A stretch of 64,000 nucleotides of DNA from Thermosipho melanesiensis BI429 (lineage in GTDB: Bacteria; Thermotogota; Thermotogae; Thermotogales; Fervidobacteriaceae). The translations under genes and the position numbers were made by a program. Below, piece by piece: positions 849 through 63,960 of the stretch (positions within the stretch are counted from its first letter, which is position 1; every line of letters starts with the position of its first letter). The DNA lies in contig NC_009616.1 in assembly GCF_000016905.1 (NCBI RefSeq), forward strand, positions 62,001 through 126,000, written 5' to 3'. Below the pieces are notes generated by a model that ran no database searches, had not been told where the DNA came from, and worked only from the letters and a program-made list of their open reading frames with translations.

Positions 849-1910
849 GTGAATTTTCCGAAACTGATAATTAATCTCGAACACATTGCAAAAAATGCAG
901 AAATATTATTGAAAAAATTAGGTAACATTGAACTTGTCGCAGTTACAAAATTAGTTTTAGGTAACCCAAAGATTGCAAAAATATTAAAAGAAGTTGGAAT
1001 TCCAAAAATTGGAGAATCAAGATTATTGAATATTAAAAAAATGATATCACACAATATTCCAGGCCCATTTCAACTTTTAAGAATACCTATGATTTCGGAA
1101 CTAAATGAAGCAGTACCAATTGTTGATGAAATACTTATTTCAGATGAATTCACTGCTTTGAAAATAGATGAAATTGCACAAAAATACGATAAAAACATTG
1201 AATTAATATACATGGTTGATGTTGGAGATTTAAGGGAAGGTGTTTGGTTTGAAAAAGCAAGAAAAACAATAGAAAATGTAGCAAAAAAACTTAAAATGGC
1301 TAAAATAACTGGGATTGGTACAAACGTAGGTTGTTTTGGCGGTGTCCTCCCTTCAAAAGAAAATTTAAATATTTTAGTAGAATTAAAAGAATATCTAGAC
1401 AAAAAGTTAGAAACAAATCTAAAAATTTCCGGTGGAAGTACGGTAACTTTAAAACTTCTAGAAAATGGAGAAATATCTGAAAAAATAAATCAATTTAGAG
1501 TTGGAGAAGGAATACTTCTTGGTACAGACGCAACTGGCCATAGAAATATTCCCTATCTTTCACAAAATACGGTAATCCTTGAAGCTGAAGTTATTGAAGT
1601 AGATTACAAGCCATCAGTTCCCATAGGTGAAATCGGAAGAGATTCGATGGGAAGAATACCGCACTTTGAAGATAAAGGTTGGAGAAAAAGAATAATACTT
1701 GCAATTGGAGAGCAAGATATTGATCCAAGCGGGCTAAAACCATTTGACAAAAATTTAGAAGTTCTTCATGCTTCTAGTGACCATACAATAATAGACTATA
1801 CAAATTCAGAAAACACGTATAAAGTTGGAGATGTACTAAGATTTCATTTATCTTATGGTTCTGCATTAAGAGTTTTTACAAGCCCCTATGTAAAAAAAAT
1901 ATTTGTATAA
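849..1910 (+). CDS. PLP-dependent alanine/ornithine racemase family protein
   Basis: 353 residues with the alanine-racemase N-terminal TIM-barrel fold. The N-terminal 'VAVTKL' carries the expected PLP-lysine near residue 35, and later blocks (VGEGILLGTDATG, around residue 220) match the ornithine racemase-like branch better than the standard Alr branch. It probably interconverts L and D forms of an amino acid such as ornithine or lysine. Thermotogales peptidoglycan is known to contain D-lysine, so a wall role is possible; fermentation of ornithine is the other option, but no ornithine aminomutase genes lie nearby. The start is GTG, chosen for the AAGGGGGG ribosome binding site just before it. 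The gene is monocistronic between two hairpin terminators. Confidence 0.75.
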   Translation: MNFPKLIINLEHIAKNAEILLKKLGNIELVAVTKLVLGNPKIAKILKEVGIPKIGESRLLNIKKMISHNIPGPFQLLRIPMISELNEAVPIVDEILISDEFTALKIDEIAQKYDKNIELIYMVDVGDLREGVWFEKARKTIENVAKKLKMAKITGIGTNVGCFGGVLPSKENLNILVELKEYLDKKLETNLKISGGSTVTLKLLENGEISEKINQFRVGEGILLGTDATGHRNIPYLSQNTVILEAEVIEVDYKPSVPIGEIGRDSMGRIPHFEDKGWRKRIILAIGEQDIDPSGLKPFDKNLEVLHASSDHTIIDYTNSENTYKVGDVLRFHLSYGSALRVFTSPYVKKIFV

Positions 1911-1940
1911 AAAAACCTCTCATTTGAGAGGTTTTTTTAT
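1911..1940. terminator. bidirectional terminator between convergent genes
   Basis: An 8-bp perfect stem (ACCTCTCA and TGAGAGGT) is flanked by A-run on the left and T-run on the right, so it can end both the racemase gene and the convergent recombinase-like gene, whose stop codon lies within the right-hand T-run. Confidence 0.85.
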
Positions 1941-3028
1941 ATTTCATCAATTTCAATAAATGCAACTCTTAATTTTCCAACCAAAAAAATAAAGAAATTT
2001 TCATCTTGTCTTCTTTTAACTTCATATCCTAACTCTTCAATAAATTCATGCCATTTATCAATATTTCTAACTAAAAACAATGTGTTTAGTCTTGAAAACT
2101 TTTCACCCCTTTTAATATAGGCCGTTCTTGAAACAATATAAGCATTTCCCACTTTTCTAACAGGAATAGATAATTTATTAAAAAAGTCCAAAACAGGTGT
2201 TAAATCATCAACTACTTCAACAGAAAGTATTGCTCTTAAATCTCCATTTTCGGAAATATACCTTGCAATATCCTCAATTGTTTTTGTAGAGCTGTATTTA
2301 AATAAATCCATAACATATGGCAACGAAGGTTGCGCAATAACTTGCCTTGCAACTGCAACATTTCTCAAAATTTCAACAGAAAGAGGCTTGTTTAACTTCA
2401 AATCGACCTTTTTTTGTAATCCCCTAAGCATTAATGCAAGATAAGATGGTTTCACAGGCTCGCCCTCAAAAGTAGAAATTAAATATTCATCCTTTCCCTC
2501 ATACTTTTTAAGCCACTTGTCAATTGGTGGAACCATTTCAACAACAAAATTATCATTTTCTATATATATTTCATTTCCTTTTATATTAGTCCCTTTTAAC
2601 CTTACAATTTCTCCTGATTTTAATCCCAACAACCCTGCAAGCCCAACCAACAAAACATATTTTTCATTTCCCTTCTTTGCCATCTCTTCCGCCTCTTTAT
2701 ACAATCTCCAAAAATCCAAATAATTTATCATTTCATATTCTGCTCTTTTGTATGGAACTTTTAAATCTTCAACTACTTCTGAATAAACCAATGGATAAAA
2801 TTTTTGCAAAAAAGATCTTAACGGTACAAAATATTGCCTCCACGCTGTAGGTTTATAACTATCTTTTATCTTTTTTAACCATTTCTTCACATTCTCGGCA
2901 TTTATTTCACCATTGACATAATCTAGAAAAGATCCAACCATGGTTATATAATTTTTTCTTGTGTTTTCAGATATATTTTGAGTTTCTATATATTCTACAA
3001 ATTTTTGAAGTTCAATTTTTACTTTCAC
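1937..3028 (-). CDS. tyrosine-recombinase-like protein with degenerate active site
   Basis: 363 residues from a GTG at 3028, which follows GGAGGTG by six bases; the ATG 21 bases upstream lies on the wrong side of that site. The N-terminal ~100 residues resemble the SAM-like core-binding domain of Xer/phage integrases (FVEYIETQNISENTRKNY). The middle resembles the catalytic domain, but the box I arginine is lysine (GLKSGEIVRLKG), the HxxR block reads 'EILRN', the later histidine is lysine ('LFKYSS') and no tyrosine stands in the nucleophile position. About 90 further C-terminal residues look like an extra domain. It may bind DNA without cutting it. No attachment sites or phage genes are seen nearby, so it is probably a resident chromosomal gene. 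Confidence 0.65.
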   Translation of the reverse strand: MKVKIELQKFVEYIETQNISENTRKNYITMVGSFLDYVNGEINAENVKKWLKKIKDSYKPTAWRQYFVPLRSFLQKFYPLVYSEVVEDLKVPYKRAEYEMINYLDFWRLYKEAEEMAKKGNEKYVLLVGLAGLLGLKSGEIVRLKGTNIKGNEIYIENDNFVVEMVPPIDKWLKKYEGKDEYLISTFEGEPVKPSYLALMLRGLQKKVDLKLNKPLSVEILRNVAVARQVIAQPSLPYVMDLFKYSSTKTIEDIARYISENGDLRAILSVEVVDDLTPVLDFFNKLSIPVRKVGNAYIVSRTAYIKRGEKFSRLNTLFLVRNIDKWHEFIEELGYEVKRRQDENFFIFLVGKLRVAFIEIDEI

Positions 3029-3075
3029 TTGTAGCACCTCCAAAAACATTAGTTAAAAAATTTATTCATAATTTG

Positions 3076-3081
3076 ATTATA
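3076..3081 (-). promoter_or_regulatory. extended -10 promoter of the recombinase-like gene
   Basis: On the minus strand TGT-TATAAT forms an extended -10 element about 50 bases before the GTG start. No convincing -35 hexamer is present. Confidence 0.45.
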
Positions 3082-3162
3082 ACACACTCATGTTTCAAAA
3101 ATATATATTTTATTTTTCAAAAGTTACAATTAGCTTTGCTAACATTTCGCATATGTAACATT

Positions 3163-57306: not shown

Positions 57307-57382
57307 TGGTGGAGCCGATGGGATTTGAACCCACGGCCTCTACCGTGCGAAGGTAGCGCTCTCCCAACTGAGCTACGGCCCC
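57307..57382 (-). tRNA. tRNA-Ala (CGC anticodon)
   Basis: 76 bases with encoded CCA. The acceptor stem has the G3-U70 pair that identifies alanine tRNAs; the anticodon arm CTACC-TTCGCAC-GGTAG gives anticodon CGC. D and T arms are standard. Confidence 0.95.
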
Positions 57383-63710: not shown

Positions 63711-63787
63711 CGGGGCGTAGCGCAGTTGGCTAGCGCGCCTGTCTTGGGAACAGGAGGTCGCTGGTTCGAGTCCAGTCGCCCCGACCA
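63711..63787 (+). tRNA. tRNA-Pro (TGG anticodon)
   Basis: 77 bases with encoded CCA; anticodon arm CCTGT-CTTGGGA-ACAGG. The C1-G72 end pair is typical of proline tRNAs. Confidence 0.95.
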
Positions 63788-63790
63788 CAT

Positions 63791-63867
<77 letters not shown>

Positions 63868-63883
63868 ACCTACATGGTCTAGT

Positions 63884-63960
63884 GCGCCCGTAGCTCAACA
63901 GGATAGAGCACCGGACTTCTAATCCGGGGGTTGTGGGTTCGACTCCCGCCGGGCGCGCCA
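63884..63960 (+). tRNA. tRNA-Arg (TCT anticodon)
   Basis: 77 bases with encoded CCA; anticodon arm CCGGA-CTTCTAA-TCCGG. Confidence 0.95.

What the first reader, a model, noticed from the sequence alone, without database searches (positions are those of the whole stretch)
1937..3028. Tyrosine-recombinase fold with catalytic residues lost and an extra C-terminal domain
Both Xer-type domains can be followed, but box I Arg, the box II His residues and the Tyr are changed, and ~90 residues are added. The gene has its own promoter and terminator and no frame disruption, which suggests selection for a non-recombining DNA-binding role.
Basis: partly seen in the sequence, partly recalled or inferred. 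Interest (0 to 1): 0.55.

Follow-up and report, generated by a model that had tools for sequence, protein, structure and literature searches.

The report
Dead Xer recombinase kept as regulator
A gene in heat-loving Thermosipho bacteria descends from a DNA-cutting recombinase that lost its cutting residues, gained an extra domain and has been kept by selection, most likely as a DNA-binding regulator that acts at its own promoter.

Summary
Window 1937-3028(-) encodes a tyrosine-recombinase-fold protein. All 10 orthologs found share the active-site losses: box I Arg to Lys, Lys hairpin shortened, box II His to Glu and Asn, the Gly-His His to Tyr, nucleophile Tyr to Ile. Box II Arg and the box I acid are kept, and a conserved C-terminal domain of about 100 residues is added. 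dN/dS is 0.03-0.13, like its neighbours. The gene is syntenic in 9 Thermosipho-lineage genomes and sits at another locus in 1 of 9 genomes of a sister genus. Its closest relatives are catalytically intact XerA-like proteins.

A predicted model matches XerA, XerH and Cre, and also MrpR/YopR and SroF, phage repressors with a dead recombinase fold.

New here: a 45-bp element, the only strong match per genome, lies upstream of the gene in all 9 syntenic genomes, 41-43 bp before an invariant extended -10 box (53 bp in one). In leave-one-genus-out tests it beats a 64-kb background in 7 of 8 genomes. The C-terminal domain looks like a tandem repeat, weakly resembling the vicinal-oxygen-chelate fold.

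Best reading: a domesticated dead Xer regulating transcription at its own promoter, working like MrpR. DNA binding, target and ligand are inferred.

The parts
1937..3028 (-). coding sequence of the dead Xer-fold protein, GTG start, 363 aa (370 aa if read from the ATG at 3049)
2750..3016 (-). N-terminal core-binding (SAM-like) domain, residues 12-100; residues 65-78 are the most conserved stretch (13 of 14 invariant)
   Evidence: Pfam SAM-like hits in 10 of 10 members; pLDDT 70-95 in blocks of 10
2246..2749 (-). catalytic-like domain, residues 101-268, active site lost
   Evidence: hhalign to residue 258; pLDDT mostly 70-97 in blocks of 10; VIA matches
2618..2620 (-). codon of K144, in place of box I Arg
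2360..2374 (-). codons of E226-N230 (ExLRN), in place of HxLRH; R229 kept
2258..2269 (-). codons of I261 (position of the nucleophilic Tyr) to Y264 (invariant Tyr, three residues on)
1940..2245 (-). added C-terminal domain, residues 269-370, two similar halves, weakly VOC-like
3114..3158 (-). conserved 45-bp element between queA and the gene, candidate binding site
3076..3084 (-). extended -10 box TGTTATAAT, TGnTATAAT in 9 of 9 loci
3035..3041 (-). ribosome-binding site GGAGGTG
1906..1941 (.). hairpin shared by the convergent genes, terminator-like

Best explanation
It is a chromosomal, vertically kept protein that arose from a XerA-like tyrosine recombinase, lost strand cleavage, and now works as a sequence-specific DNA-binding regulator. 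It most likely binds the 45-bp element about 42 bp upstream of the -10 box of its own gene and tunes its own transcription (and perhaps a few other promoters), in the way MrpR uses a dead recombinase fold as a repressor. The C-terminal domain would sense a small molecule or hold the oligomer together. Shown: recombinase descent, uniform loss of the active site, purifying selection, a conserved and promoter-phased DNA element. Inferred: DNA binding, that this protein is what binds the element, the sign of regulation, and the role of the C-terminal domain.
For: Descent and fold. Active-site loss in 10 of 10. Selection. Most conserved stretches are 65-78 and 199-212, not the active site alone. 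Element: leave-one-genus-out scores 24-35 in 7 of 8 held-out intergenic regions against a best of 8.2-12.5 in the 64-kb window on both strands; one strong hit per genome, 27-41 bits, next best in any genome 19.1 (model built from those sites); spacing to the -10 box 41-43 bp in 8 of 9 and 53 bp in the ninth, while the distance from queA varies from 34 to 126, so it belongs to this promoter and not to queA. Precedent: MrpR has a tyrosine-recombinase fold, keeps 3 of 7 catalytic residues, lacks recombination activity and binds a 15-bp operator (PMC10516654, passages); the model aligns to MrpR/YopR and SroF structures at Z 13.1-14.2.
Against: No binding data. The element has no dyad symmetry beyond chance in 7 of 8 sites (G082 16 of 200 shuffles as good, the others 39 to 199). 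It is single-copy, so no regulon is visible. In the one genome where the gene sits elsewhere the match is weak: 22 of 1000 shuffles as good, and negative with a longer matrix. The model used 22 integrases in its alignment, so similarity to integrases is partly built in. An element upstream of a promoter could belong to another regulator.
Confidence: 0.5

Rival explanations
1. Chromosome-architecture factor: a dead Xer that binds one or few chromosomal sites and acts on SMC-ScpAB, as XerD does when it unloads SMC near the terminus of Bacillus subtilis.
For: In G075 the gene is the first of a same-strand run gene-coaBC-324 aa-CBS-ScpA-ScpB with a 35-bp gap to coaBC. XerD unloading SMC is cited in PMC8357415 (passages; original not read). 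A XerD-like/CBS/scpA/scpB order in streptococci is recalled, not tested. The element is single-copy.
Against: Linkage to scpAB in 1 of 10 carriers; in the other 9 the gene is at the queA locus, and coaBC-CBS-ScpA is kept without it in 18 of 18 other genomes looked at. Genomes without the gene keep ScpA.
Confidence: 0.15
2. Dead partner of the single canonical Xer: it sits with the active Xer on dif or a dif-like site and controls its activity, as one half of a XerC/XerD-type pair.
For: Each carrier has a canonical intact Xer; the fold that binds DNA and partners is kept; single-recombinase dif sites can lie next to their gene (PMC5357621, passages).
Against: Relatives without the gene have the same canonical Xer. 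The C-terminal helix region that recombinases swap between partners is followed here by a different domain (role of that helix recalled). No dif was located.
Confidence: 0.15
3. A recombinase with a displaced active site, using Y264 and K144.
For: Y264 and R229 are invariant in 10 of 10.
Against: Box I Lys, missing Lys hairpin, Glu for His and a nucleophile three residues off together leave 2 of 7 core residues (the seven are listed in PMC10516654). R225K was used in solved Tn1549 integrase-DNA complexes (6en2, 6emz); that it inactivates is recalled.
Confidence: 0.03
4. A decaying gene without function.
For: Loss of catalytic residues.
Against: Uniform losses, 139 of 370 positions invariant in 10 genomes, dN/dS 0.029-0.132, conserved promoter and upstream element.
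Confidence: 0.02

Closest known systems
MrpR/YopR, master repressor of Bacillus subtilis prophage SPbeta (and SroF of phi3T)
   Same: Tyrosine-recombinase fold with most catalytic residues lost; regulator rather than recombinase; the model aligns to 8bj6 (Z 13.7, 2.6 A over 156 residues), 8bpz, 8a0a and to SroF 9rgl (Z 14.2, 2.8 A over 158).
   Different: Phage genes; MrpR keeps Lys and Tyr, this protein neither; no added C-terminal domain is described for MrpR in what I read; no sequence match to MrpR at E <= 1; MrpR has many sites, this element has one.
XerA-like second Xer of three genomes of another Thermotogales family (L025-L027)
   Same: Closest relatives in the tree (100/96 support); both Xer domains.
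   Different: Active site intact, no C-terminal domain, other neighbours.
TnsF of Tn6022 (Tn7-like)
   Same: Inactivated tyrosine-recombinase domain reused for target DNA recognition (PMC10293859, passages).
   Different: Zinc fingers, transposon-borne; this gene is chromosomal and has a different extra domain.
Streptococcal XerD-like protein (NCBIfam NF002685, PRK02436)
   Same: Weak hit, E 6.2e-6, 26.2 bits, residues 18-240; recalled as lacking the active site.
   Different: Far under its cut-off of 178 bits; no added domain in the model (245 positions).

Membership tests
Tyrosine recombinase (Xer) as an active enzyme | R-K-H-R-H/W-Y active site | tested here: not met
   Only box II Arg (and the box I acid) kept in 10 of 10
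Tyrosine recombinase (Xer) as an active enzyme | Over the curated cut-off of a family model | tested here: not met
   XerA model 43.2 bits against 220; PF00589 not matched by the window protein
Tyrosine-recombinase superfamily by descent and fold | Homology over core-binding and catalytic domains | tested here: met
   hhalign E 4e-18; Foldseek XerA E 8.7e-10; VIA XerH Z 17.4, 4.8 A over 269
MrpR/SroF-type regulator with dead recombinase fold | Recombinase fold without recombinase active site | tested here: met
MrpR/SroF-type regulator with dead recombinase fold | Sequence kinship to MrpR | tested here: inconclusive
   Not among chains at E <= 1
MrpR/SroF-type regulator with dead recombinase fold | Binds an operator and controls transcription | not testable with these tools
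   Only a candidate element
Vicinal-oxygen-chelate (glyoxalase/bleomycin-resistance) fold for the C-terminal domain | Two beta-alpha-beta-beta-beta modules | tested here: inconclusive
   Halves align in register, 0 of 150 shuffles as good; FosA/FosB match Z 6.5-6.9, 1.4-1.8 A over 47-48 residues of a low-confidence model; 3r6a E 0.078 (its VOC nature is recalled); no Pfam glyoxalase hit
Streptococcal XerD-like | Over the cut-off of NF002685 | tested here: not met
   26.2 bits against 178

The most novel reading that the evidence does not exclude
A chromosomal, vertically inherited one-component regulator assembled from a dead Xer recombinase and a VOC-like sensor domain, with its own promoter-phased operator: recombinase-to-transcription-factor conversion outside phages and transposons.
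Probability: 0.25. Interest if true: 0.7.

Novelty: new variant of a known kind. Interest (0 to 1): 0.5.

Why it matters
Recombinases that became regulators are documented for phages (MrpR) and transposons (TnsF). Here the conversion appears in the chromosomal core of a bacterial lineage, with intact close relatives on one side and a uniform dead clade on the other, so the steps of the conversion can be compared. It also gives a concrete DNA element to test, and warns that a recombinase annotation may hide a regulator.

Tried and rejected
First structure run with 4 orthologs gave mean pLDDT 50, good only for the N-terminal domain; the second run with 22 integrases added fixed the catalytic-like domain but not the C-terminal one.

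Inverted-repeat nature of the element: considered and not supported. A regulon: the weaker hits of the element model that I read (loci L239-L249 and L229, 12 loci) lie in open frames in 11 of 12 and are not orthologous to each other. The strict pattern GTTAGCNNARCTAA occurs 6 times in 20 genomes against 9 for the reversed control, so it is not enriched overall; 1 of the hits is at the window gene and 1 of the 2 hits of G075 is upstream of its ortholog, but the pattern was drawn from those two.

queA terminator as the origin of the element: rejected, because 88-92 extra bases separate it from queA in three genomes while its distance to the -10 box stays. Rfam: only tRNAs in the window. PADLOC: none. 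Relatives in viral contigs: none confirmed. In genome contigs: 3 loci, all Thermosipho (two peptide patterns only). VOC proteins in relatives for comparison: none found with PF12681 in 21 genomes. PHROGs: phrog_3434 of unknown function touches the C-terminal part at E 0.003; not followed.

Papers: not found in print under the searches: a dead Xer of Thermosipho or one with an added domain. Most subscription journals are not held.

Rows dropped: G079 from the tree (near copy of G080), so 9 of 10 family members, each cut to 275 residues; G079 from the element alignment (its element is the same as that of G080), so 8 of 9; G081 from the training sites because of an indel, though it was scanned and missed the true site. 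Of 80 viral-contig loci I used 22 in A5.

Full report
The window lies in a 1.915-Mb closed genome (G000) of the Thermosipho lineage: three of its relatives carry the title Thermosipho sp.. The gene at 1937-3028(-) stands between a convergent racemase-like gene and queA-rpsO, which read in its direction (gene names recalled from the translations). Within its own genome the only PF00589 match is a canonical Xer elsewhere.

What it is. Pfam sees only SAM-like N-terminal domains, just under cut-off. NCBIfam gives XerA at E 3.4e-11, far under its cut-off. A search of 103 genomes of the phylum finds matches in 13: 10 full-length orthologs (4 of 4 genomes of the window's genus g1, 4 of 4 of g4, 1 of 1 of g5, 1 of 9 of g2, 0 of 2 of g3) and 3 shorter proteins in another family. 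The three are catalytically intact second Xer proteins without the added domain. In a tree of 62 rows the orthologs form one clade (100/100) whose sister is these three (100/96), apart from the canonical Xer; the stem of the dead clade is long (3.62 changes per column), so the exact root of the loss is unsure.

The active site. Over 10 orthologs the box I Arg is Lys, the hairpin that carries the catalytic Lys is shortened, HxLRH reads ExLRN, the His of LGH is Tyr, and Ile stands where the nucleophile should be, with an invariant Tyr three residues on; box II Arg and the box I acid remain. By the seven-residue list of the MrpR paper this is 2 of 7, against 3 of 7 for MrpR (PMC10516654, passages).

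Selection. dN/dS is 0.029-0.132 over eight pairs, and similar in both recombinase domains and the C-terminal domain; queA gives 0.062-0.117 and the racemase-like gene 0.082-0.141. dS is above 1 in most pairs, so the values are rough; the close pair G079/G080 (dS 0.24) gives 0.029. The stretches with most invariant residues are 65-78 and 199-212.

Place. The gene has the same neighbours in 9 of 9 genomes of g1, g4 and g5. In G075 (50-51% identity) it heads a same-strand run coaBC-324 aa-CBS-ScpA-ScpB. That run (coaBC, CBS, ScpA in order) exists in 19 of 19 genomes of the family in which ScpA was found and looked at, but only G075 has the gene in front of it; ScpB was picked up in 15 of the 19. 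ScpA and coaBC of G075 are 47-53% and 57-63% identical to those of the carriers, so 51% fits vertical descent with losses as well as an old transfer.

Structure. With 22 integrase sequences added, AlphaFold2 gives mean pLDDT 77, mostly 85-97 up to residue 230 and 67-79 to about residue 270. Foldseek ranks XerA first, E 8.7e-10, then Cre, integron integrase and XerH. VIA-align gives XerA Z 18.9 (but 15.5 A, domains turned), XerH Z 17.4 at 4.8 A over 269 residues, Cre about 16, and the dead-fold repressors SroF (9rgl Z 14.2, 2.8 A over 158) and YopR/MrpR (8bj6 Z 13.7, 2.6 A over 156).

The added domain. In the ortholog-only model its second half, residues 322-370, matches FosA/FosB-type proteins at Z 6.5-6.9 and 1.4-1.8 A over 47-48 residues, below the level the tool calls reliable and on a model of pLDDT about 50-67. 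By sequence the best PDB match is 3r6a, E 0.078, and Pfam has nothing. The two halves align to each other in register with a score above all 150 column-shuffled controls. I read this as a likely tandem module of VOC type, unproven.

The upstream element. Alignment of the nine queA-gene intervals shows one conserved stretch amid unalignable sequence. Trained on two genera and tested on the third, a weight matrix finds it in 7 of 8 held-out intervals with scores 24.0-34.9, while the best of all positions on both strands of the window, with the site masked, is 8.2-12.5; G081, with an indel, is missed. A gap-tolerant model built from 8 sites finds one strong match in each of the nine genomes (27.0-41.4 bits) and nothing above 19.1 bits elsewhere in 20 genomes. 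Its distance to an extended -10 box that is TGnTATAAT in 9 of 9 is 41-43 bp in eight genomes and 53 bp in G085, one helical turn more, whereas its distance from the queA stop is 34 to 126. In three g4 genomes a weaker second copy seems to lie further upstream. In G075, at a different locus, the interval before the gene holds GTTAGCATAACTAA, like GTTAGCAAAGCTAA of the window; 22 of 1000 shuffles do as well with the shorter matrix, and a longer matrix does not find it convincing (score -5.2). No dyad symmetry stands out.

How it most likely works. A dead Xer still clamps its DNA site with two domains. The phased element upstream of its own promoter is the natural candidate. From there it would modulate transcription of its own gene; a C-terminal domain of VOC type would make it respond to a ligand, or dimerise it. 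MrpR shows that a dead recombinase fold can do the first part (PMC10516654). The steps from element to protein, and from protein to output, are inference. The rivals are a role with SMC-ScpAB (linkage in 1 of 10) and a role beside the canonical Xer.

Novelty. Dead recombinases as DNA-binding proteins are known in phages and transposons (PMC10516654, PMC10293859, passages read). What differs here is vertical descent in a chromosome, a deeper active-site loss, an added domain and a private element. I call it a new variant of a known kind.

Noticed in passing
L024:8787-14004: In G075 the dead-Xer ortholog heads a coaBC-324 aa-CBS-ScpA-ScpB run; the rest of the run is kept across the family without it.
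   Followed up: partly
L025:7998-8825, L026:7723-8640, L027:8837-9667: Three genomes of another Thermotogales family carry a second, catalytically intact XerA-like gene beside the canonical Xer; role unknown.
   Followed up: partly
L229:1500-1545: A second intergenic GTTAGCGAAACTAAC palindrome in G075, between a transporter-like gene and a small GGDEF-like gene (names from my reading of the translations); possible second target of the protein.
   Followed up: partly
window 63711-63957 and 57310-57382: Three clustered tRNA genes and one single tRNA gene (Rfam); ordinary.
   Followed up: no
window 1937-3049, residues 257-340 of the protein: Weak match (E 0.003) of the C-terminal part to phrog_3434, a phage protein family of unknown function.
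   Followed up: no
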